Source: Wenzhouxiangella sp. XN79A
GTDB lineage: Bacteria > Pseudomonadota > Gammaproteobacteria > Xanthomonadales > Wenzhouxiangellaceae
DNA: 64,000 nt
NCBI RefSeq assembly: GCF_012272825.1
Contig: NZ_JAAWWS010000168.1
Coordinates: forward strand, 28,740 to 92,739
Reading direction: 5' to 3'
The notes beneath the pieces were generated by a model. That model made no database searches. It was given only the letters and a program-made list of their open reading frames with translations, and was not told where the DNA came from. Numbering within the stretch: the stretch's first letter is position 1; each line of letters begins with the position of its first letter. Of the stretch, positions 6,801 through 42,197 are shown in pieces. A program made the position numbers and the translations under genes.

Positions 6801-8660
6801 TCAGCGGCGGGCCAGCCAGCCCTCGATCCGTGCCCGGGTCGGCTCGACCAGCGGCAGCACACGCTCCAGCGCCTCGGCATTGCGCTTCCACTTGTCCGGG
6901 GCCGGACGGTCGAGGGTGTGACGGGACAACGGCAGTTGGCCGTCGAACGGCGGCGGCGTCAGGCCCAGGCGGTCGCACAGCGCACTCAGCGTCGCCTCGG
7001 GCTGTTCGATCAGCGACTCGTAGACCACCGGCACCGCATCGGCGAACGCGCCGCCGTCCAGCGCGTCCAGGATGGCCTCGTGCGCGACCTGCCACTGGCG
7101 GGCGGCCATCATCGCGACATCATCGACCGGCAGGTCCCGCCAGCCCGGGATCAGCAGCAAGGACCAGGGCGGACCCTGCCAACCCGGGAGTTCCGGGTAG
7201 GTCACGAAACGCCCCGACCCCCAGGCGTCGATGATGCTGCTGATGTTCTCGCGCGGCCGGCGGACCAGGTAGACCAGCTGCATCCCCGGAAAGACCTGTT
7301 TCAGGAACGGCAGGCGCAGCGCGTTCTTCGGCGTCTTCTCCAGCAGCCGCGGCGCATCGATCGCCTGCAGCCGCTCCATCCCCTCGTGGCGGACCACCGC
7401 ATCGGCGAACCGGCTGCGCAATGCGTCGACCAGGGCCGGCCGGGCATCGGCGGCGGCCAGCGCATTGGATTCGAAGCCGCGGGCGGCCGGGTTCAACGCC
7501 TCGATTCCCTCGATCACCCCATGGCTTTCACCACCGATCGACACGGTTTCGGGGCAACGCGCCAGGCACTCGAACAGCAGCGTACTGCCGGAACGCGGCG
7601 CCGCGGCGATCACGACCGTCCGACCGAGCCGGACGCGCGGCCGGACCGGCGCGGCCGACCCGGCGCCCGGCGACGCCTCCGGACGCGCCGGCCCGGCGGC
7701 CGTGGCCGGAGCCACCTCCTCGGCCAGGCCACTGTCGACGATCACCACGCGGATCATCGCGGCCACGTCGGCACCGTTGGGAAACGACAGCTGCCCTTCG
7801 AAGGCATCGAGGTCGCGACTCAGCGTATCCAGCGCGCGGGCATAGGCCGGCCGCCCTTCCGCTGTCGGGCCGAAGCGCGCCCACAGGCCGCGCCACTGGA
7901 AGCGGAACCGCTCCATCCGGGCCTGGAGCTGGCGGCTCGTCTCGCGCGGTGCGCCGCTGGCGACCAGGTCGTCGAACAGGTTGGCCAGCAGGCTCTCCTG
8001 TTCCCACGGGCTCATCACCGCCGGCCGGTTGCTGCGCTCGAAGTGCAGCTTCGGCCGGCGCTCGGGCAGGAACGGAACGGCGCGCGGCCGGAACGACCCG
8101 CCGTCGTCGGCGAACGGATTCCGGGCCCCGGCCAGCAGGTCCCAGAACGGGCCGGATCCAACCGTATCGCAGACCAGGTGGACACGCGGCTCGGCCGACG
8201 GGTTGGTGACCCTGTGCACCTTCCAGGTATCGAACACCCAGCATTCGCCGGGCTGCATGTGGACGTCGCGGTCGCCGCAGTGGAAACGCACGCCCGGTGA
8301 CGTCCGGATCGGCACGTGGACGCGCATGCGCTGATGCCAGTAGTAGTTCTGGTCGAAGTGCGGGCTGGCCTCGGCCGCGCCACCGATGCGCATCAGGCGC
8401 GACCGACCGATGACCGTGGCGAAGGCCTCCATGACCTGCTGCAGATACGGACAGGCGGCCAGCGCCGGCGTCGGCGCCATCGCGCCCGCCAGATCATCGT
8501 TCTGCCCTCCGCCGGTGGTCACCAGCAGCAGCGCGTCGTTGTCGCGGAACCCTTGCGGATGCGGACGCCAGGCCTCGTGGGGCACGGCGTCGATCTCGGC
8601 CTGCAGGCGCTCGGCATCGAACTGCAGCGGCAGCTGCAGGAACTCGGCGGGCAGTTTCAT
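6801..8660 (-). CDS. Aspartyl/asparaginyl beta-hydroxylase - sulfotransferase fusion
   Basis: 619 residues. Residues ~1-200 form an aspartyl/asparaginyl beta-hydroxylase-like double-stranded beta-helix: candidate Fe(II) ligands are H101 (SPHFDQNYYWH) and H149 (WKVHRVTN), with R159 in PRVHLVCD as probable 2-oxoglutarate ligand. After a ~140-residue linker rich in Ala/Pro (~315-345), a PAPS-dependent sulfotransferase domain follows. Its 5'-phosphosulfate loop is APRSGSTLL (354-362), and a second PAPS-binding segment YLVRRPRENISSIIDAW is visible. The combination predicts a cytoplasmic enzyme that hydroxylates and/or sulfates a common substrate, possibly a peptide or secondary metabolite (inference). 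No signal peptide. The start has only a weak ribosome-binding site. Divergent from the IPTL-CTERM gene. Confidence 0.85.
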   Translation of the reverse strand: MKLPAEFLQLPLQFDAERLQAEIDAVPHEAWRPHPQGFRDNDALLLVTTGGGQNDDLAGAMAPTPALAACPYLQQVMEAFATVIGRSRLMRIGGAAEASPHFDQNYYWHQRMRVHVPIRTSPGVRFHCGDRDVHMQPGECWVFDTWKVHRVTNPSAEPRVHLVCDTVGSGPFWDLLAGARNPFADDGGSFRPRAVPFLPERRPKLHFERSNRPAVMSPWEQESLLANLFDDLVASGAPRETSRQLQARMERFRFQWRGLWARFGPTAEGRPAYARALDTLSRDLDAFEGQLSFPNGADVAAMIRVVIVDSGLAEEVAPATAAGPARPEASPGAGSAAPVRPRVRLGRTVVIAAAPRSGSTLLFECLARCPETVSIGGESHGVIEGIEALNPAARGFESNALAAADARPALVDALRSRFADAVVRHEGMERLQAIDAPRLLEKTPKNALRLPFLKQVFPGMQLVYLVRRPRENISSIIDAWGSGRFVTYPELPGWQGPPWSLLLIPGWRDLPVDDVAMMAARQWQVAHEAILDALDGGAFADAVPVVYESLIEQPEATLSALCDRLGLTPPPFDGQLPLSRHTLDRPAPDKWKRNAEALERVLPLVEPTRARIEGWLARR

Positions 8661-8670
8661 CGCGATGAAA

Positions 8671-8699
8671 TTGTCTCGGCGGAAGAATTCGCCTATTAT
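8671..8699 (+). promoter_or_regulatory. Candidate sigma-70 promoter for the DUF4347/IPTL-CTERM gene
   Basis: TTGTCT (8671-8676), a 17-base spacer and TATTAT (8694-8699) are close to the -35/-10 consensus. They would give a leader of about 85 bases before ATG 8790, whose AGGGAG ribosome-binding site lies near 8771. The box overlaps the start region of the divergent fusion gene. Confidence 0.45.
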
Positions 8700-8789
8700 C
8701 CACGCTGGGGAGTGTGACGAAATTCAAACTTTTTCGCTCCACGAACAGGCCGACTTCGGCCGTGAATTCAGCAGGGAGTACGCATCCAG

Positions 8790-11700
8790 ATGACCTCCGA
8801 ATCCTTCCGCACCACGCGGCTGCATCAGGCCGTCCGCAGCGCGCTGGCCGGCATGCGCCGACCGGCCGCACTGGCCTCGATCAGCCTGGCCACCGGCGCC
8901 GGCGCGACCGCGCTGCCGGCGCTGGCGCTCGACGTCGATCTCGCGGCTACGACGGTCGGCAGCCACGCGCGGCAGCACGCCGGCGCGCTGCTGGTGCTCG
9001 ACGCCGGCGTCGAGAATGCCGAGGTGCTGACCCGCGACCTGCCGACCGGCGTTCGGGTCGCTCGGCTGCCGGCCGACGTGGCGCCGCTGCGCGGCCTCGA
9101 GATGCTGCTGGAGGCCCACCCGGGCACCCGCGAACTGCACGTGGTGTCGCACGGCGGACCGGGCCGGCTCGACTTCGCAGGCGGCGCGGTCGATGCCGAC
9201 GCGCTGGCCGCCTCGGCCGACCGACTGGCGCGGTGGTTCGACGGCGTCGAGCGTCCGGAGATCGTGCTGTACGGCTGCGACGTGGCGGCCGACGAACGGG
9301 GCCTGGCCTTCATCGATGCGCTGGCGCGCCACACCCGCGCCCGGATTTCGGCGTCAGACGATCCGACCGGCGCGGCCGCCAGCGGCGGTGACTGGACGCT
9401 GGAACGCTCGACCGCACTGGCCGCCCGCGCGCCGCTGTTCGGCGAGGCCGCACGGTCCGAGTTCGAGGGCCTGCTGGCGACGTTCACGGTGACCGATGCC
9501 GGCGACAGCGGTCCGGGCACACTGCGCCAGGCCGTCGTCGACGCCAACAACACGCCGGGTGCCGACATCATCGAGTTCGACGCCGGGCTGTCGGGGTCGA
9601 CCATCACGCTGAGCTACGGCGAGCTGACCATCACCGACGACGTCAGCATCGAAGGGCCCGGCGCCGCCGACCTGACGATCGACGGCAACGACAACTCGCA
9701 GATCTTCGTCATCACCAGCCAGGCGGCCACGGTCTCGATCTCCGACCTGACGCTGACCGGCGGATTCGCCGACGGCAGCAATGGCGGCGCGATCGAGAGC
9801 TTCGCGACCAGCCGGCTGACGATCGCCGATTCGATCCTGACCGGCAACCGTGCCGAAAGCGCGTACGGACCGGTCCGGGGCGACGCTGGGCGCGGGTACT
9901 ACTACGGCGGCGGAGGGAACGGCGGCGCAATCGCCCAGACCCAGGGCGAATTGGTCATCACCGGAACGACGATCCAGAACAACACGGCCAAGTACGACGG
10001 CGGCGGCATCTGGTTCTTCAGCAATGCGAGCGATGATCTGCTGCAGATCAGCCAGTCGACGGTCACCGGCAACGTGGCCGGCGACGGCGGCGGCATCTAC
10101 TACGGCGGCGGTGACGGCGGTGGGGTTCACATCGAGGTCTTCAACTACGGTGGCGCCTTTACGGTCACCGATTCGACGATCTCGTCGAACTCCGCCTCGT
10201 CCGGTGGCGGCCTGGCGCTGTACGCCGATTCGCTGAGCACCCGAAGCTACGGCACCGGCATCGCGCGCGGCACGCTGACGGTCAGCACCACCACGATCCA
10301 GGGCAACTCGGCCACTCGCGGCGGCGGCGGGCTGTTCCTGTACGGCGAGCAGGACATCTCCGACATCGTGATCGAGGGCAGCCAGATCCTCGACAACACC
10401 GTCGAGACCGTCAGCCCGCCGCCGTTGCGCGGCGGCGGCGCAGGCCGGAGCGTCGGCGGCGGCATCCTGTTCGCCAACGACTACGGCATCGGTGGAATGA
10501 CGGTCCGCGACACCAGCATTTCGGGCAATACCGCCGGGCTGGGCGGCGGCATTGCCGTGGTGTTCGAATCCTTCGGCTCCGACGTGGTCGTGGAGACCAG
10601 TACGATCAGCGGCAATTCGGCCATCGGCGGTCCCGGCGGCCCACAGGGCGGACCGGGGTACGGCATCGGCGGCATCGGCGGCGGAGTGCTGATGTTCAAC
10701 GAAGAATCCTTCTACGACGGGCCGCCCTACGGATCGCTCACGGTCCGCGATACGACGATCAGCGCGAATACGGCCGACCTCGCCGGCGGCGGGTTCGGCG
10801 CGATCAGCCGCCAGGCCCTGAATCAACCGGTCCGCGGCGTGGCGAGAGTGGCCGACCCCAGTCGCTTCGGCGGCGCGGACGGTTCCGACGAACGGCGGGC
10901 CGAAGCGCGCGGCAGGGGCCCCACCCTGCTCAGCGAGATCCTGGTCGAAGGCTCGACGCTGAGCGGCAATCAGGCGCTGGTCGGCGGCGGCTTCGCGGCC
11001 AACGCCAGCGGAACGCGCGGGCTGCAGCTGACCAACAGCACCGTCAGCTCCAACAGTTCGGCGTTCGGCGGCAGCGGGATCGAACTCTACGGCGTCCAGC
11101 CCTACGGCCCGGTGCGCGGTGGCTACGGCCTGACGCTCTCGGCCGACTTCCTGACCCTGGCGAACAACACCTCGGTCGGCGTCCGGGGCGGCGGCAGCGC
11201 GGGCCTGAGCCTGGGCTACGGCGACCTGGCGGTGCTGGCCAACAGCGTACTTGCCGACAACGGCTACGACCTTTCGGGCAGCGCCGAGGCCGACTTCACG
11301 CTGATCGAGAACGACAGCCTGGCCACGATCACCGGCGCCAGCAACATCATCGGCAGCGATCCGCTGCTCGAGCCGCTGGCCGACAACGGCGGACCGACCG
11401 AGACCCACCTGCTCGGCCCCGGCAGCCCCGCGACCGACGCCGGCGACCCGGCCTTCACCACGCCGCCGGACTTCGACCAGCGCGGCACCGGCTTCCCGCG
11501 CGTGGCCAACGGCCGGATCGACATGGGCGCCACCGAAGGCCTGCCGCCGAGCATCGCGCTCGCGCCCGACCCGGTCGACTTCGGCGTCGTCAAGGTCGGC
11601 GAGACCAGCGCCGCGGGCGCGGTGACGATCTCGAACAGCGGCGGTCTGTTGAGCGTTTCGGGGATCAGCGCCGCGGGCGGTGCCTTCGCCGCCGCCGGTG

Positions 11701-35736: not shown

Positions 35737-36022
35737 GCTGGAATCGGGCGGAGCGGCGATCGGAACTCTCGGCGGCAGACTCGGAAGCGACGGCGCATTC
35801 TAGCCCGGCGTGCGAGACGTTGGCAGGTCGACAGCCGGTCTCGCAGCGACGCAAGGCCATTCCGGATCCGTGAGTGCAGGCAACGCGGCCGGGCGCGCAG
35901 TGCATATCGAACCGGTCTGTTCTCGTCCATTCGCAGTTTTCCTGCGGCTCCGGGTCCCGGCGACGACCGCTTCGGGTTTCCCCGACCTTTACCGGGGCCG
36001 GGGAACCGGCGATGATGGCCGG
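35737..36022. other. Upstream region of S8 peptidase
   Basis: Bases between the possible GtrA start and the peptidase ATG. No supported gene; should contain the peptidase promoter. A short inverted pair CCTTTACCGGGG-type sequence lies near 35988-36000 but is too weak to call. Confidence 0.3.
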
Positions 36023-37510
36023 ATGCCGCACTATGTCCTCAGCCACCGACGCGCCGGCAAGCGCCACGACCACGAGCACCACGCCGCGCGCTCGGCAATG
36101 GCCGATGCCATGGATCGGCACGTCGACCGGATCGGCGGTGATGTCCGGACCCACCGGCCACATCACGATACCGCCCGACACGTCGCCCGGTTCGAGGCCG
36201 ACGCCGCCGACGTGGCCGCCGTGGACTGGCATCCGGAACTGATCTGCGAGCCGCTGATCCGGCATTTCATCCGGGCTCGCCACGCCAGCGACACCGGCCG
36301 GGCGCTGCCGCACGAGATCGCCATCCCGCTGCGCACCGGCAGCGCCGACTGCCTGGTGGTCCGGGTGGTCGACGAGCTCGGGCTGCCGGTGTCCGACGTG
36401 GACGTGTTCGCCTACTTCGGCAGCGCGACCGAGCGCGTCCAGGCCGCCACCCGAACCGATACGGACGGATCGGCGCGGCTGGACCACGACCCGGAGCGGC
36501 CGCTGCTGGAACTGGCGGTCGCGCCGCCTTCGCGCTGGTGGCCGCAGGTCATCGACCACAGCGCCGGACCGGAGATAACGGTCCGGCTCGCCTTGCTCCC
36601 TGCGGCCGAAGGCGGGCTCGGCTGGTGGCACCGGGAGGCGGGGCTGGAGGCGGTGGATCCGGAGCGCGGCCGCGGGATCGCGGTCGGCGTGGTCGATTCC
36701 GGCCTCGGCCACCACCCGGCGCTGGCTCACGCCAACAATCTAGGCGCCTTTCTCGACGGCGCCCACCGCGCGGACGGCGGCGACGATCGCGGCCACGGCA
36801 CGCACGTGGCCGGCGCGATCGGGGCCCGACCGACCTGCGCCGAGGAGTACGCCGGGCTGGCACCCGGTGCCCGAATCGACAGTATCCGTGTGTTCGGGCC
36901 CGACGGCAGCGCCCACCAGGCCGACATCGCCCGCGCGCTGGACGTGCTGGTCCACGACCGCGGCTGCCACCTGGTCAACCTGAGCCTGGGCACGGCGTCC
37001 CGTTCGGAGCTGGTGGCCGACGCGCTGCTCGATGCGGTGCAGGCCGGCACGCTGGTGATCTGCGCGGCCGGCAACACGGCCGGCCCGGTCGAATACCCGG
37101 CCGCGCTGGCCGAAGCGGTCGCCGTCACGGCGCTGGGCCGGCTCGACCAGGCCCCGGCCGGCACGCTGGCGGCGCACCGGATTCCGAACGATGCCCGGCT
37201 GCGCGCCGACCCGGTGTTCATCGCCAACTTCAGCTGCCACGGCGAGTCGATCGACGTGGCCGGCCCGGGCGTGGGCATCATCTCGACCGTCCCCGGCGGC
37301 GGCTGGGCCGCCTACGGCGGGACCTCGATGGCCGCCCCCCAGGTCACCGGCGCCCTGGCCGCACTGTTGGCCGACGACCCCGACTACCCCGGCCTGCCCG
37401 CCGATGCCACCCGCAGCGCTCGCGCCCGCGCCGTGCTCGTCGAACACAGCCGCGACCTGGGCCTGGATCCCATCTACCAGGGCCACGGCCACCTCCACCG
37501 CTCGTCATGA
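36023..37510 (+). CDS. Subtilisin-family (S8) serine peptidase without signal peptide
   Basis: 495 residues from ATG 36023 (weak ribosome-binding site). The N-terminal ~65 residues are His/Arg-rich (RHDHEHHAARSAMADAMDRH) with no hydrophobic signal. Residues ~100-190 resemble a carboxypeptidase-regulatory/Ig-like module (VVDELGLPVSDVDVFAYFGS). The S8 domain has a full triad: D225 (VVDSGLG), H258 (GHGTHVAG) and S435 (GGTSMAAPQ), with oxyanion N351 (CAAGN). Lack of a signal implies a cytoplasmic enzyme or a non-classical route. It faces the borosin cluster, ending 305 bases from the methyltransferase stop; a role in cleaving the borosin leader is possible but only by proximity. Confidence 0.87.
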   Translation: MPHYVLSHRRAGKRHDHEHHAARSAMADAMDRHVDRIGGDVRTHRPHHDTARHVARFEADAADVAAVDWHPELICEPLIRHFIRARHASDTGRALPHEIAIPLRTGSADCLVVRVVDELGLPVSDVDVFAYFGSATERVQAATRTDTDGSARLDHDPERPLLELAVAPPSRWWPQVIDHSAGPEITVRLALLPAAEGGLGWWHREAGLEAVDPERGRGIAVGVVDSGLGHHPALAHANNLGAFLDGAHRADGGDDRGHGTHVAGAIGARPTCAEEYAGLAPGARIDSIRVFGPDGSAHQADIARALDVLVHDRGCHLVNLSLGTASRSELVADALLDAVQAGTLVICAAGNTAGPVEYPAALAEAVAVTALGRLDQAPAGTLAAHRIPNDARLRADPVFIANFSCHGESIDVAGPGVGIISTVPGGGWAAYGGTSMAAPQVTGALAALLADDPDYPGLPADATRSARARAVLVEHSRDLGLDPIYQGHGHLHRSS

Positions 37511-37535: not shown

Positions 37536-37783
37536 GGATCATGAGTGGGAAGAGGACAAGGAGCGAAGGGCGCAACGAAAGATGGGCGAAAACGGAATCG
37601 ACCCGTGGAGACCCTGCGGGAACCGGCCGCTGCCGAAGTGCTTCGATCGATGCCTTTCGGGCGAACCTCCATCTTCGCTCGTTCCGAACGACGGCCTTGC
37701 CCGATCCCCCGAAGCCGCGACTCCACCACCAGAACGCTTTGCTTGGCGTCCTTCGCTCCTTGCCCTCTTCGCGACCATGATCT
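37536..37783. repeat. Large imperfect inverted repeat between convergent genes
   Basis: Left arm 37536-37581 and right arm 37736-37783 are near reverse complements over about 45 bases, sharing the run CAAGGAGCGAAGG. The ~155 bases between arms are non-coding. The element fills the 37511-37815 gap between the peptidase and the borosin methyltransferase and could terminate transcription from both sides or be a dispersed non-coding repeat. Confidence 0.65.
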
Positions 37784-37815: not shown

Positions 37816-38643
37816 TCAGCCCCGACGGCGGTATTTCTGGAACGAGGCTTCGGCCAGGCCGGTCGGGTCCAGGCCGAGGCGGCGGAGACGGGCGGGGTCG
37901 GGTTCCGGCGCGCCGATCGGCGGCACGTACAGAGTCGAGGCCTGGGTGAGGTCGAGCTCGTGCAGCCGGTTCAGCGGCACCCGGTCGATCCGGGTTGCGT
38001 CGAACGGACCGACGGCGGCCTCGTAGACGATCACGGCATGCGCGTCGGAATAGCTCTCGGCCAGCAGGTCGGCGAGCGCGCGCACCCAGGTCGGATCGGT
38101 GCGGAAGGTCGATCGCGAGCGGTCGCCGAGCACCGCCAGCTGCCACAGCACCAGCGGCGTGCGCGGATCGAAGCGCCGGGGGTGGACCAGGAAATCGGCC
38201 GCCTCATAGGTCTGCAGCCCGCTGACGCCCGGATCGATTCCGAGGTCGGCCACCAGGCAGTCCTCGGCCGAGATACCGGGGTACATCGTGGCCTCGAACC
38301 CTTCCGAGCGAGCCTGGCGAACCGCCTCGTGGGCCGGCCAGACGAACACGCCGGGATGACCGTAGAACGCCGCGCAGACCTGCGCACCGGCGCGGACCGG
38401 CTCGAGGATGGCCGTGACCATGCGTCGATAGCTCTCGTCGCGCGACCGGCCCCGGGCGTAGTGCACCTGCAGCGAGACCACCTCCGGGTTCAGTTCGCGC
38501 AGCACGTCGAGCGAGAACGGGTCGGCCATGACCGCGAACACCCGGTCCGCGTGGCGGACCAGGTGACGGGTTTCGACGGTCAACTGGCCGGCCAGGCGGA
38601 TGCCCGTGCCGACCACCGAGAGCCGGCCGGGTCGAACCGACAC
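37816..38643 (-). CDS. Split-borosin peptide alpha-N-methyltransferase (tetrapyrrole methylase fold)
   Basis: 275 residues from a GTG at 38643, five bases after the precursor stop. The TP-methylase fold is shown by LSVVGTGI at the N-terminus. The sequence follows fungal OphMA and bacterial SonM closely: SRDESYRRM, FYGHPGVFVWP, EGFEATMYPGISAEDC, ADLGIDPGVSGLQTYEA. Y62, R68 and Y72 keep the exact spacing of the OphMA catalytic residues Y66, R72 and Y76, and Y94 matches Y98. Unlike OphMA, the substrate peptide is not fused: it is the separate 68-residue protein encoded just upstream. Predicted reaction: SAM-dependent, iterative methylation of backbone amide nitrogens in the precursor core. Cobalamin or sirohaem methylase identity is unlikely given these residues and the context. 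Confidence 0.9.
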   Translation of the reverse strand: MSVRPGRLSVVGTGIRLAGQLTVETRHLVRHADRVFAVMADPFSLDVLRELNPEVVSLQVHYARGRSRDESYRRMVTAILEPVRAGAQVCAAFYGHPGVFVWPAHEAVRQARSEGFEATMYPGISAEDCLVADLGIDPGVSGLQTYEAADFLVHPRRFDPRTPLVLWQLAVLGDRSRSTFRTDPTWVRALADLLAESYSDAHAVIVYEAAVGPFDATRIDRVPLNRLHELDLTQASTLYVPPIGAPEPDPARLRRLGLDPTGLAEASFQKYRRRG

Positions 38644-38648
38644 CGAGC

Positions 38649-38855
38649 TCAGAGAACGATGAAGTTCATGTGTGCATCTTCGGCACCGGCTTCGTCCTGC
38701 AGCGCCTTCTTGTCGCCGCTGCGGATCAAGTCCTTGTGCTCATCGGACAGGTCATGCGATTCCATGACGGCCTCCGGGTCGGATTCGAACTTCTTGCGGG
38801 TTTCCGGGTCCTCGGCCATGGTGCGGATGAACTTGCTCAGGTTTTCCTTCGACAT
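38649..38855 (-). CDS. Split-borosin RiPP precursor peptide
   Basis: 68 residues, ATG 38855 with AGAGGAGA six bases upstream. Residues 1-~52 form the helical borosin-binding domain (LSKFIRTMAEDPETRKKFES, then DPEAVMESHDLSDEHKDLI and SGD), the same layout as SonA of Shewanella. A short linker (QDEAGAED) leads to the hydrophobic C-terminus AHMNFIVL. Unlike SonA there is no follower sequence; the last four residues F65-I66-V67-L68 are the obvious methylation candidates. The binding domain also resembles the LigA-type (extradiol dioxygenase small-subunit) fold, which could mislead automatic annotation. Immediately followed by the methyltransferase, so the two are translationally coupled. Confidence 0.88.
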   Translation of the reverse strand: MSKENLSKFIRTMAEDPETRKKFESDPEAVMESHDLSDEHKDLIRSGDKKALQDEAGAEDAHMNFIVL

Positions 38856-38861
38856 TGCAGA

Positions 38862-38869
38862 TCTCCTCT
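38862..38869 (-). promoter_or_regulatory. Strong ribosome-binding site of the borosin precursor
   Basis: AGAGGAGA read on the minus strand, six bases before the ATG. It is stronger than those of the flanking genes, as expected for a precursor needed in excess. Just upstream (38875-38883) is a run of nine G/C that abuts the amine-oxidase stop. Confidence 0.7.
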
Positions 38870-38895
38870 CGGATGGGGGGGGGTGGGTGGAGCGA

Positions 38896-40422
38896 TCAGG
38901 AACGATACGGGGCCAGCGCGTCGGTCTCGCCGAGCCAGGCCGGCGCGTCCAGGTCGAAGACCTCCTGGAGCATCACCTCCGCAGAGGTCAGCGCGCCCTC
39001 GGCCCAGCCCTGGTAGGCGCTGTAGGCCTCGCCGCAGACATGGATGCCGGACGCACCACGCAGCGTCGCGGCCGCTTCCCAGCTCGTCCAGCCCGGCGAC
39101 CAGGCGTGCCAGCCGGCGTAGTACGGCGGCGCGGCCCAGTCGACGAAGATGCCGTCGACCGGTAGCGGCACCTCCACACCGTGCATTTCCGACAGCTGGC
39201 GACACAGCTCGACGGCAGCGCGTTCAGGAAGCGGAGTGGTCAATTCGACGCCGCGACCGTCCTCGCGCATCAGCGGCGGCCAGAACGAGACCGCCCGCTC
39301 GTCGCCGAACGCGCCGAGCAAAAGGCCGTCGCCGGTGGTCGGATCCTGGCCGAGGTAGAAGCACTGCCGCATCGGCAGGTCGGTATGCGAGGCCGAGAAG
39401 TGGCCCGGGTCGATGTGCCCGGGGCCGTCCGGCACCTGCTCCCACCAGGGGTGATCGAAGACGACGAAGATCTTGCAGGCCGGTGTCCCGAACGACGAGG
39501 CGAGCGCAGCGTGGACGGACGGATCGGCGTCGAAGTCCAGTCGCTCGAGCGCACCGGTCGGCAGCGCGAGGATCACCCGGCGGGCGTACACCGGCGCGCG
39601 ACCGTCGGCGAACTCGATGCGATGCACGCCGTCGCCCTCGGCCCGGACCGCATGCACGAACGCGCCCGTGCAGACCTCGACGCCCGCGGCCTCGGCCCGG
39701 GCGCGCAGCTGATCCGGCAGCCGTTGATAGCCGTCGGGCAAGCGGAACCAGTGGCCGACCAGGTCGGCCAGCGTCGAGAACGTGGCGTCGAGAGCATTCC
39801 AGTTGCTGAACAGCGCGTAGGTGCCCTCGACATCGGCCAGGGCCAGACGCGCCTCGTTGCTGACCACGCGGGCGACCAGGTTCCAGAATCCCCAGCTGTG
39901 CAGCGCTCGACCGTCGAAGGTCACGCCTCTGAGATAGGTCACGGTCTCGGCCATCGAGGATTCGGGGGCGAACGGCCAGTAGCGGTCGATCTCCGGCGCG
40001 ATGCGGCGAACGATCAACAGCAGCAACTCGTGCGGCAGCTTGCCCTGCTCGTCGTCGGCCAGCCGGTACGGCAGCACGCCCGGCTCGGCGAACTCGGACA
40101 TCCGGAAGCGGGTCGCGCGCAGCCAGGCGAAGTCCGCCTCCGGGGTGACGGCCTGCAGTTCCAGCTTCAGTTCGTCCTTGCACAGTCGGTAGACCAGGTC
40201 CTGCGCATCGCTGAAGAACATGCCGCCGAGCTCGGCCGGAATCGTGTGTTCGTCCTTCAGGCAGACCGAGTAGAGCCGTCCGCCGGTCCGGTCGCTGCCT
40301 TCGAAGACCGCGATGCCGCGGCCGTCGAGGCCGCTGCCGGCCAGCCGCCACGCGCTGTACAGGCCGCTGACGCCGCCGCCGATGATCGCCGTGTCGAGCA
40401 CGGCGCGTTGTCGATCCGTCAT
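38896..40422 (-). CDS. Flavin-dependent amine oxidase, candidate borosin tailoring enzyme
   Basis: 508 residues from ATG 40422, chosen for its AAGGGAAG site; an ATG at 40470 overlapping the diguanylate cyclase stop (ATGA) is the alternative. The FAD-binding Rossmann motif is at ~12-30 (AIIGGGVSGLYSAWRL), with a second conserved motif GGRLYSV, and C-terminal FAD-contact segment HVCGEAYSAYQGWAEGAL. It belongs to the monoamine oxidase / L-amino-acid oxidase superfamily and has no signal peptide. Forty bases upstream of the borosin precursor on the same strand, so oxidation of the methylated peptide (for example amine or C-N oxidation) is a plausible job; a metabolic amine oxidase is the alternative. 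Confidence 0.87.
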   Translation of the reverse strand: MTDRQRAVLDTAIIGGGVSGLYSAWRLAGSGLDGRGIAVFEGSDRTGGRLYSVCLKDEHTIPAELGGMFFSDAQDLVYRLCKDELKLELQAVTPEADFAWLRATRFRMSEFAEPGVLPYRLADDEQGKLPHELLLLIVRRIAPEIDRYWPFAPESSMAETVTYLRGVTFDGRALHSWGFWNLVARVVSNEARLALADVEGTYALFSNWNALDATFSTLADLVGHWFRLPDGYQRLPDQLRARAEAAGVEVCTGAFVHAVRAEGDGVHRIEFADGRAPVYARRVILALPTGALERLDFDADPSVHAALASSFGTPACKIFVVFDHPWWEQVPDGPGHIDPGHFSASHTDLPMRQCFYLGQDPTTGDGLLLGAFGDERAVSFWPPLMREDGRGVELTTPLPERAAVELCRQLSEMHGVEVPLPVDGIFVDWAAPPYYAGWHAWSPGWTSWEAAATLRGASGIHVCGEAYSAYQGWAEGALTSAEVMLQEVFDLDAPAWLGETDALAPYRS

Positions 40423-40466: not shown

Positions 40467-42197
40467 TCATTGACTCGAGGAACAGGCCACCCGATTCCGC
40501 CCCTGCTGCTTGGCGGCATACAGGGCCTGGTCGGCCTGTCGCAGGACATCGGAACGCGACATCCCCGGCTCGAAGCGGGCCAGCACACCGATCGAGATCT
40601 TCAGGGCCAGCGGTTGACCATCGTAGTGCACCGGCGCGTCGGTCACGGATCGATGGATCCTGCGCGCCACATCGACCGCCGCGCGGCCGCTCAGCGAGCG
40701 GAGCACGACGGCGAATTCATCGCCACCCAGACGGCACAGCACGTCGCCCTCGCGCAGCTCGCGCAGACAACGGCGGGTCAGCGACCGCAGCATGACGTCA
40801 CCGGCTTCGTGGCCGTGGGTGTCGTTGATCTGCTTGAACCAGTCGATATCCAGAAACAGCAGCGCACTCTCGGAATTCGATCGCCGCTGGTCCTCGAGCA
40901 GCGTGTCGAGGTAGTTCTCGAAGAAACGCCGGTTGTAGGCGCCGGTCAGCGCGTCCTGATTGGCCAGGGTCATCGCACGATGCTGTTCGTGCTCGGCGCG
41001 GATCCGCTGTTCCCGAAGCTGGCCGACGCGATACGACAGGCCCAGCGCAAGGATCATCGCTTCGAGCACGCTGCCGACATAGAGTGCATATTCGGCGATC
41101 TCGGTTCGAGGAATGGCCTCGACACCGATCAGCGACCGAACGAATCCGCCGATCAGGAACGCACTCCAGCCGGCCAGGAAGATCCAGGCCGCGTTGGAAC
41201 CGCGCCAGCCCGCCAGGGCCGCCGCAGCGATCAGCACGAACACCATGATCGAGGTCATGAGCTGGGCGAGCGGCCCGAACAGTGCCGCGGCGCCGAGCGG
41301 TGCAAAGGCAGTGATGCCGGCCAGGACCAGGAAGGCCAGCGCCACGACCGTCAGCACGGTACTGATCCGCGGAATACGCTCGGCCGAGCCGGAAAAAACC
41401 TGGAAGAACCGGATGGTGGCCGCCATCATCAGGCAGCTCAGCGTCACGGTGATCATCAACTCGCGCTCGCGCAGGGCCTCGGGCAGCAGGTTCTGCAGCA
41501 GGCCGGCGTCCATGCCCATGAACAACAGCACGGCCGTCATCGCCAGCACGTACATGCGATGACCGGGTGTGCGCAGGTTCAGATAGAGCACCAGGTTGTA
41601 GAAGACCAGCGCGATCACCGCACCGAAATACAACCCGAAGGCCCACATCGCGGTCGCGCGCTCGCCGAGGTACTCGGCTTCGGTCTGGATCGAGATGTCC
41701 AGCGGACTCAGCGGGCCCTGCAGGGTTTCGGCGCGCAGTACCAGCTCGGCGCGCTGGCCGGGCGCCAGCGTCAGCGGATAGACCATGAACCAGGCCGACA
41801 GCTCGACCGGCTGATACTCCGCCAGGCTGTTGCTGTAGCGCTGGAAGGCCCCGTCGGCAGTCGGGACGAACAATTCCAGTTCACGGAAATAGCGCCGCTT
41901 GACCGTGATCTTCCACGACCCGGCGTGGTGTTCCGGCGCCTGCAGCGGAATCCGCAGCCAGGCCGGACCCTCGGGCGATGCCTCGAGCGCGTCGATCGGC
42001 TGAAAGCCTTCGGCGGCCAGGACATCGGCAGGCCGCTCGAGGCTGCCGTCGTCGGGTCGAACCCACGCGGAATCCTGCACTCGAGTGATTTCGCCGGCAA
42101 CCGGCAGCACGACCGGCGCCTGCCCGACGGCCGCGCTCGAAATCGCCGACAGCATGCCCAGCAGCAGCCACCGGAACCTGTGGATCGCGGTGTTCAC
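40467..42197 (-). CDS. 7TMR-DISM diguanylate cyclase
   Basis: 576 residues from a GTG at 42197. Signal peptide (RFRWLLLGMLSAISSAAVGQ), periplasmic 7TMR-DISM extracellular domain (~30-190), seven transmembrane helices (~195-400), a short coiled linker and a GGDEF domain. The active-site motif RLGGDEFAVVL is intact, and an inhibitory I-site RxxD (REGD) sits exactly five residues before it. Predicted to make c-di-GMP in response to a periplasmic ligand, probably a carbohydrate-like molecule, with product feedback. It is upstream of the borosin genes on the same strand with no gap, so read-through is possible. Confidence 0.92.
   Translation of the reverse strand: MNTAIHRFRWLLLGMLSAISSAAVGQAPVVLPVAGEITRVQDSAWVRPDDGSLERPADVLAAEGFQPIDALEASPEGPAWLRIPLQAPEHHAGSWKITVKRRYFRELELFVPTADGAFQRYSNSLAEYQPVELSAWFMVYPLTLAPGQRAELVLRAETLQGPLSPLDISIQTEAEYLGERATAMWAFGLYFGAVIALVFYNLVLYLNLRTPGHRMYVLAMTAVLLFMGMDAGLLQNLLPEALRERELMITVTLSCLMMAATIRFFQVFSGSAERIPRISTVLTVVALAFLVLAGITAFAPLGAAALFGPLAQLMTSIMVFVLIAAAALAGWRGSNAAWIFLAGWSAFLIGGFVRSLIGVEAIPRTEIAEYALYVGSVLEAMILALGLSYRVGQLREQRIRAEHEQHRAMTLANQDALTGAYNRRFFENYLDTLLEDQRRSNSESALLFLDIDWFKQINDTHGHEAGDVMLRSLTRRCLRELREGDVLCRLGGDEFAVVLRSLSGRAAVDVARRIHRSVTDAPVHYDGQPLALKISIGVLARFEPGMSRSDVLRQADQALYAAKQQGRNRVACSSSQ

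What the first reader, a model, noticed from the sequence alone, without database searches (positions are those of the whole stretch)
37816..40422. Split borosin RiPP cluster: precursor, alpha-N-methyltransferase and a flavin amine oxidase
The 275-residue methyltransferase keeps the Y-x5-R-x3-Y spacing (Y62, R68, Y72), the FYGHPGVFV and PGISAED blocks of OphMA/SonM, and is five bases from a 68-residue precursor with a SonA-like binding domain. Borosins carry backbone N-methylations, rare in ribosomal peptides. A flavin amine oxidase in the same run is not part of the minimal methyltransferase-precursor pair, so the mature product may be oxidised as well as methylated. Automatic annotation would probably call these 'SAM-dependent methyltransferase', 'hypothetical' and 'amine oxidase' and miss the system.
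Basis: partly seen in the sequence, partly recalled or inferred. Interest (0 to 1): 0.95.

Follow-up and report, generated by a model that had tools for sequence, protein, structure and literature searches.

The report
Borosin peptide operon with dedicated oxidase
A bacterium, likely of the Wenzhouxiangellaceae, carries a four-gene operon that encodes a small precursor peptide, a borosin-type methyltransferase predicted to methylate its backbone, a flavin oxidase that lacks the arginine with which free-amino-acid oxidases grip their substrate and so likely works on the peptide instead, and a predicted c-di-GMP signalling enzyme; the oxidase would be a borosin tailoring step that the papers we could read do not describe.

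Summary
On the minus strand a diguanylate cyclase (42197-40467), FAD amine oxidase AO (40422-38896), 68-aa precursor (38855-38649) and 275-aa methyltransferase (38643-37816) form one tight gene run. The methyltransferase matches SonM (E 5e-66) with four active-site residues; the precursor matches SonA (4e-6) and ends in a hydrophobic tail without follower. So it is a split borosin, a known kind. The oxidase is the new part. All 8 of 61 genomes (own included) with the orthologous methyltransferase have it adjacent. Two relatives lack just AO, precursor and methyltransferase (2.6 kb against 72-75 bp). In an alphaproteobacterial MAG AO and precursor are one ORF. AO has the L-amino-acid-oxidase fold (TM 0.85 to 8jhe) and the O2 lysine, but the carboxylate arginine is phenylalanine in all 65 close homologues listed. 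One orthologous tail has no side-chain amine. Best reading, inferred: after leader removal AO deaminates the peptide N-terminus. SonM-type loci often have a GNAT acetyltransferase instead, but its absence is shared by AO-less relatives, so this parallel is weak. A codirectional GGDEF gene lies near 45 of 80 borosin methyltransferases, hinting at signalling. Product and chemistry are untested.

The parts
37816..38643 (-). Borosin alpha-N-methyltransferase, 275 aa; Y62, R68, Y72, Y94 match SonM Y58, R67, Y71, Y93
   Evidence: phmmer to SonM 7ltc E 5.3e-66; residue map; trees
38649..38855 (-). Borosin precursor, 68 aa plus stop
   Evidence: SonA E 4e-6; Pfam LigA 3.4e-7; AF2 helical bundle, 32 of 33 Foldseek hits being SonA or LigA-domain chains, all at weak E
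38691..38855 (-). Predicted borosin-binding (leader) domain, residues 1-55
   Evidence: LigA match to residues 6-54; helices between 2 and 56 in the AF2 model
38652..38690 (-). Predicted core tail AGAEDAHMNFIVL, residues 56-68, no follower; I66 and L68 align with the methylated SonA L63 and I65
   Evidence: alignment to SonA, extended by one residue; SonA sites; 17 sequences in A4
38896..40422 (-). FAD amine oxidase, 508 aa (longer ORF to 40470), L-amino-acid-oxidase fold with Phe at the carboxylate-arginine site (F85 in the 524-aa numbering), O2 lysine kept (K333)
   Evidence: Pfam Amino_oxidase 3e-36; 8jhe alignment; column count; R67/K322 roles; AF2 pLDDT 94 and 8jhe TM 0.85
40467..42197 (-). 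7TMR-DISM membrane diguanylate cyclase, 576 aa, GGDEF and RxxD motifs present
   Evidence: Pfam GGDEF 1e-44, 7TMR-DISM_7TM 3e-27, DISMED2 1e-7; motif
35993..37510 (+). Convergent S8 subtilase, candidate leader protease (weak)
   Evidence: Pfam Peptidase_S8 1.5e-35; orthologue in the 3 same-genus genomes with the cassette and in 0 of 3 without

Best explanation
The window holds a split-borosin operon in which the methyltransferase is predicted to N-methylate the tail of a separate 68-residue precursor, and a flavin oxidase that is present or absent together with that pair would likely oxidise the amine at the front of the released peptide. Shown by sequence or computation: gene order; borosin identity of methyltransferase and precursor; co-occurrence, joint absence and one fusion of the oxidase with the precursor; Phe in place of the carboxylate-gripping arginine, with the O2 lysine kept. 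Inferred: the precursor docks by its helical leader domain; I66 and L68 (and perhaps neighbours) receive backbone methyls; a protease (perhaps the convergent S8 enzyme in this genus) removes the leader; the oxidase, descended from L-amino-acid oxidases but no longer demanding a free carboxylate, deaminates the new N-terminal residue to an alpha-keto cap. Loci of the group that holds the Shewanella enzymes often have a GNAT acetyltransferase in the neighbourhood, which may cap the same amine by other chemistry. The linked diguanylate cyclase suggests that the product acts in, or is governed by, c-di-GMP signalling.
For: Borosin identity. Oxidase belongs: orthologue (E<=1e-40) in 9 of 61 genomes, namely the 8 with a methyltransferase of 54% identity or more (own included) plus G023, whose contig ends just past it; order DGC-AO-precursor-MT in the window, L114-L120 and L034; empty sites in L132 and L133 with flanks 81-88% identical to L120; AO directly followed or overlapped by a precursor ORF in alphaproteobacterial L038-L041, and one 602-codon ORF holding both in L043. 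Substrate shift: Phe in 72 and Arg in 26 of 102 aligned AO rows, all 65 close homologues being Phe; role of the Arg. N-terminus: the tail in L115 (AGVDDAAVQLLIV) holds no side-chain amine. GNAT in 34 of 80 loci and 0 of the 9 AO loci, Fisher p 0.009 ignoring kinship; GNAT domain confirmed by Pfam in the 4 scanned.
Against: No chemistry is tested. The AO-precursor fusion could equally mean that AO acts on the leader-bound precursor, before any N-terminus is freed. The Arg loss is read from alignments and a model without FAD. The GNAT contrast follows the tree: GNAT is in 33 of 51 rows of the group with the Shewanella loci, but in 0 of 23 oxidase-less rows of the other group as well as 0 of 14 oxidase rows, so it does not show that the oxidase replaces GNAT. 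Neither protease looked for is shared by the cassette loci: S8 is absent (E<=1e-40) from the six other-genus relatives with AO and present in one AO-less genome, G047; A1 is in none of the 9 AO loci. The DGC persists without the cassette in G027 and G029. The 88-row tree does not settle a single origin of AO linkage (24% of bootstraps).
Confidence: 0.48

Rival explanations
1. Same borosin pathway, but the oxidase works on the leader-bound precursor, oxidising the backbone (for example C-alpha to N dehydrogenation at or near an N-methyl residue) rather than a freed N-terminus.
For: AO and precursor in one ORF in L043; AO gene directly before the precursor gene in the AO loci read.
Against: The O2-reactive lysine typical of amine oxidation is kept; flavin amine oxidases are not known to me to oxidise amides (recalled).
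Confidence: 0.22
2. The precursor is not matured into a released product; the methylated leader-core protein is a regulator of the linked cyclase, and the oxidase modifies that protein.
For: Codirectional GGDEF within 3 kb of the methyltransferase in 45 of 80 borosin loci; 49 hits in 443 kb near against 10 in 498 kb beyond 4 kb; strongly conserved tail among close orthologues; no protease found that all cassette loci share (S8 and A1 looked for; exporters not searched).
Against: Some loci of the Shewanella-holding group carry an A1 protease and a GNAT (13 and 34 of 80), as expected for a released, capped peptide; GGDEF is near 0 of 23 oxidase-less rows of the window's own tree group; the DGC survives alone in two genomes.
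Confidence: 0.15
3. The oxidase is an ordinary small-amine or amino-acid oxidase that makes H2O2 and is only a neighbour.
For: Fold and best matches are L-amino-acid oxidases.
Against: Joint presence and absence, the fusion and the missing carboxylate arginine.
Confidence: 0.1
4. The methyltransferase is a cobalamin, sirohaem, YabN or RsmI enzyme, and the small ORF is a chance Nif11/LigA-like protein.
For: Pfam and NCBIfam give TP_methylase, YabN and precorrin-methylase names.
Against: NCBIfam scores lie far below cut-off; SonM and OphMA E-values; active-site match; SonA-like neighbour.
Confidence: 0.02

Closest known systems
Type IV split borosin SonM/SonA of Shewanella oneidensis (PMC8429565)
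   Same: Separate TP-methylase-fold methyltransferase and LigA-like precursor, neighbouring genes, same four active-site residues, hydrophobic C-terminal core; GGDEF gene near the methyltransferase in the three Shewanella loci held (L074, L110, L113)
   Different: Methyltransferase lies outside the tree group with the Shewanella loci; the tail ends at the position of SonA I65, with no follower; a flavin oxidase is present, while those three Shewanella loci have an A1 protease and a GNAT
OphMA-type fused fungal borosins
   Same: Related methyltransferase domain, E about 1e-47 to OphMA-type chains
   Different: Precursor is a separate protein
HTAncLAAO2 / bacterial L-amino-acid oxidases (8jhe, 7eih, 8t8a)
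   Same: Fold (TM 0.85 to 8jhe), FAD domain, O2 lysine
   Different: Carboxylate-binding Arg replaced by Phe; linked to a RiPP precursor

Membership tests
Borosin alpha-N-methyltransferase | Closest homology to characterised borosin methyltransferases | tested here: met
   SonM 5e-66, OphMA type 1e-46 to 1e-50, precorrin methylase 2e-4
Borosin alpha-N-methyltransferase | Active-site Tyr/Arg/Tyr/Tyr (SonM Y58, R67, Y71, Y93) | tested here: met
   Y62, R68, Y72, Y94
Borosin alpha-N-methyltransferase | Not grouping with RsmI or cobalamin enzymes in a tree | tested here: inconclusive
   36 borosin-like rows lie apart from the genome's own RsmI-like row on a very long branch; one outgroup row only, no cobalamin rows
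Borosin alpha-N-methyltransferase | Backbone N-methylation of the precursor | not testable with these tools
   Needs co-expression and mass spectrometry
Type IV split borosin | Methyltransferase and precursor encoded separately | tested here: met
   Two ORFs 5 bases apart
Type IV split borosin | Precursor with borosin-binding (LigA-like) domain | tested here: met
   SonA 4e-6, LigA 3.4e-7; Foldseek hits to SonA at TM 0.55-0.71 but E 0.1 or worse
Type IV split borosin | Which of types IV-X applies by core and enzyme architecture | not tested
   The paper looked up for types V-X was not held; a second defining paper was not looked up
L-amino-acid oxidase | Fold, FAD domain and O2 lysine | tested here: met
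L-amino-acid oxidase | Arginine that recognises the substrate carboxyl (R67 of HTAncLAAO2) | tested here: not met
   Phe at that column in the window protein and all 65 close homologues
Diguanylate cyclase | GGDEF domain with intact motif | tested here: met
   Pfam 1e-44; GGDEF motif in the window protein and 11 of 11 orthologues scanned

The most novel reading that the evidence does not exclude
A distinct class of oxidative borosins: a former L-amino-acid oxidase, re-aimed by loss of its carboxylate arginine, converts the N-terminal amine of a backbone-N-methylated peptide into an alpha-keto cap, and the capped peptide is a signal made beside, and acting through, a dedicated nucleotide cyclase (c-di-GMP here; a class III cyclase-like protein in most of the alphaproteobacterial loci).
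Probability: 0.18. Interest if true: 0.85.

Novelty: new variant of a known kind. Interest (0 to 1): 0.62.

Why it matters
Borosins supply the backbone N-methylation that makes peptides protease-stable and membrane-permeable, and PMC8429565 (2021) states that no type IV pathway was yet associated with a final product. A flavin oxidase that rides with the pair gives a concrete second modification to look for, a simple mass test (about -1.03 Da for an alpha-keto N-terminus on top of +14 Da steps) and a possible tool for capping N-methylated peptides. The repeated pairing with diguanylate cyclases makes the unknown role of bacterial borosins testable by gene removal.

Tried and rejected
Considered and rejected: cobalamin/RsmI identity of the methyltransferase; ordinary L-amino-acid oxidase as mere neighbour. 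Tried with little gain: contig-length matching of oxidase and methyltransferase or precursor proteins, 22 of 65, a lower bound because only 120 of 4699 methyltransferases were listed; the inverted repeat downstream of the methyltransferase is not a family in this genome, its arm pattern occurring at one other place with one mismatch. Weak: S8 subtilase as leader protease, Fisher p 0.1 for 3 of 3 against 0 of 3, two of those three being 83-85% complete. Single origin of oxidase linkage: one clade in the 37-row tree (14 of 14 oxidase rows, 95/83), not settled in the 88-row tree. Left out of the 88-row tree: L061 (a second contig of the L060 strain) and L118-L120 (judged by equal contig lengths to be the assemblies of L035, L037 and L036).
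Full report
What is there. On the minus strand four genes follow each other: a membrane diguanylate cyclase (42197-40467; Pfam GGDEF, 7TMR-DISM_7TM, 7TMR-DISMED2), a FAD amine oxidase (508 aa from 40422; the ORF from 40470 overlaps the cyclase stop), a 68-aa precursor 40 bases on, and a 275-aa methyltransferase 5 bases further. The genome is likely of the Wenzhouxiangellaceae, judged by the names of its matches; I did not place it formally.

Borosin identity. The methyltransferase matches SonM at 5e-66 and the OphMA type at about 1e-47, while the best precorrin methylase scores 2e-4. SonM Y58, R67, Y71 and Y93, which were probed by mutation (passages of PMC8429565), correspond to Y62, R68, Y72 and Y94. 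The precursor matches SonA at 4e-6 and Pfam LigA at 3e-7; Pfam also gives Nif11 just above its cut-off. Its AF2 model (pLDDT 79, pTM 0.60) is a helical bundle whose Foldseek hits are SonA chains and LigA-domain dioxygenases in 32 of 33 rows, though none with E below 0.1. SonA is methylated on Leu63 and Ile65 (passages of the review PMC11285071); by alignment these are I66 and L68 here, the last residue, so there is no follower (that alignment stops at residue 67 and I extend it by one).

Orthologous precursors. Eleven proteins were found, the window's own included; ten end in AGAEDAHMN plus four hydrophobic residues, and one in AGLDDAHMNFIIF. More distant cassettes end AGVDDAAVQLLIV, AGIDHNKLQFIII, AGIDHNKLQFVIL, AGIDDNKMQLIIL, AELDDQMCRLIIF and AGLDDEMCRLIIF. 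The tail keeps its length and its final run of hydrophobic residues in all 17 aligned.

The oxidase belongs to the pathway. Among 61 genomes (own included), 28 have a borosin-like methyltransferase at E<=1e-30, and 8 of these have one at 54% identity or more. The oxidase orthologue occurs in those 8 and in G023 only, where the contig ends just beyond it (Fisher p 3e-9 without correction for kinship). The cyclase orthologue occurs in those 9 and in G027 and G029. In G027 and G029 the syntenic site lacks methyltransferase, precursor and oxidase: 2594 bp of L120 stand against 72 bp of L132, and about 2.6 kb against 75 bp of L133, with flanks 81-88% identical. So the three genes are present or absent as a block while the cyclase stays.

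Wider survey. In the latter a borosin-binding-domain ORF directly follows or overlaps the oxidase gene (L038-L041), and in L043 oxidase and precursor share one 602-codon ORF. L038, L040, L041 and L043 have a 900-940-aa protein with AAA/STAND and TPR matches between precursor and methyltransferase; three of the four also match the class III cyclase domain, L040 does not. In a 37-row tree all 14 oxidase-linked methyltransferases form one clade (95/83). In an 88-row tree they need one or two changes against a shuffled mean of 13.2, and a single origin is seen in 24% of bootstraps. They lie outside the 51-row group that holds the Shewanella loci.

Substrate of the oxidase. Its model (pLDDT 94) matches HTAncLAAO2 8jhe best (TM 0.85, 29% identity). 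In HTAncLAAO2, R67 recognises the substrate carboxyl and K322 the O2 (passage of PMC10517122); a second LAAO paper describes such an arginine and a conserved lysine (passages of PMC9331233). In the alignment to 8jhe the lysine is kept and the arginine has no counterpart; I infer a 2-residue numbering offset between chain and paper. In a wider alignment of 102 rows the column is Phe in 72 and Arg in 26 (N, C, T and a gap in one each): all 65 close homologues and P0198 are Phe, and of the other 30 more distant ones 26 are Arg. L038, L040 and L041 read GGMFF; L039 has a different motif, and L043 was not read there. Whether the distant proteins of this list lie beside a borosin gene was not checked. 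A free alpha-amino acid is therefore an unlikely substrate. The L115 tail has no side-chain amine, which leaves the freed N-terminus or the backbone.

Mechanism proposed. Methylation of the leader-bound tail, leader removal, then deamination of the N-terminal residue to an alpha-keto cap. The order and the last two steps are inferred. A GNAT lies in 34 of 80 loci and an A1 protease in 13 of 80, and neither in any of the 9 oxidase loci (hits anywhere in the locus; Pfam confirms GNAT in 4 of 4 and A1 in 2 of 2 scanned). Checked against the tree, GNAT is in 33 of the 51 rows of the Shewanella-holding group and in 0 of 23 oxidase-less rows of the other group, so the contrast is one of lineage; that acetylation there and oxidation here serve the same capping purpose is only a suggestion.

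Signalling link. A codirectional GGDEF domain lies within 3 kb of the methyltransferase in 45 of 80 loci (42 of 62 with full flanks): 49 hits in 443 kb near against 10 in 498 kb beyond 4 kb. It is confined to the Shewanella-holding group (40 tree rows plus L061) and the four Wenzhouxiangellaceae-like loci; 0 of the 23 oxidase-less rows of the other group have it, nor do the five alphaproteobacterial oxidase loci. A figure legend of PMC11395268 already names GGDEF in borosin architectures, so this link is not wholly new. The GGDEF motif is intact in the window cyclase and the 11 orthologues scanned.

Novelty. Full-text searches for borosin with diguanylate, amine oxidase and oxidase, and for backbone N-methyl with GGDEF gave no paper that I could see describing an oxidase in a bacterial borosin cluster. 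Of the 11 papers holding borosin and oxidase (10 listed) I read passages of PMC11285071, PMC13097080 and PMC9505594; the oxidases there are unrelated; the rest I saw as listings. PMC8429565 and PMC11395268 do not contain a word beginning with oxidase in their main text. The split-borosin types paper and the borosin profiling paper were not held, so prior notice there cannot be excluded. I file this as a new variant of the split borosins.

Noticed in passing
L121 (G000:C28), about 7350-10160: A second borosin system in the same genome: precursor MGKLKNLL...SGLDELHLTKSTIKAYR, a GGDEF domain and a 44%-identical methyltransferase in a different tree group, no oxidase found; similar precursor, GGDEF and methyltransferase in G004 (L124).
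   Followed up: partly
L043: 3380-5182: Oxidase and borosin precursor encoded as one ORF in an alphaproteobacterial MAG.
   Followed up: yes
L108 around 7369-8000 and L058 around 7015: 327-codon ORFs with a borosin-binding domain; in L108 it is followed by many near-identical AMVYGA-type repeats, like a multi-core precursor, in MAGs labelled Deltaproteobacteria and Myxococcales.
   Followed up: no
L073, L111: Borosin-like methyltransferases in MAGs labelled Thermoplasmata archaeon.
   Followed up: no
L101: 6778-8001: A 408-codon ORF with a borosin-binding domain at its C-terminus directly before the methyltransferase (MAG labelled Paracoccaceae).
   Followed up: no
L076: 7771-9275: Two borosin-like methyltransferase stretches in tandem (51% and 36% identity to the query).
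   Followed up: no
L074, L110 and others, upstream of the methyltransferase: Pepsin-type A1 aspartic protease plus GNAT in some loci of the Shewanella-holding group; candidate leader protease and N-terminal acetyltransferase.
   Followed up: partly
window 37537-37782: 44-nt imperfect inverted repeat (80%) with 158 nt between the arms, lying between the convergent S8 and methyltransferase genes; one further partial match of the arm in the genome.
   Followed up: yes
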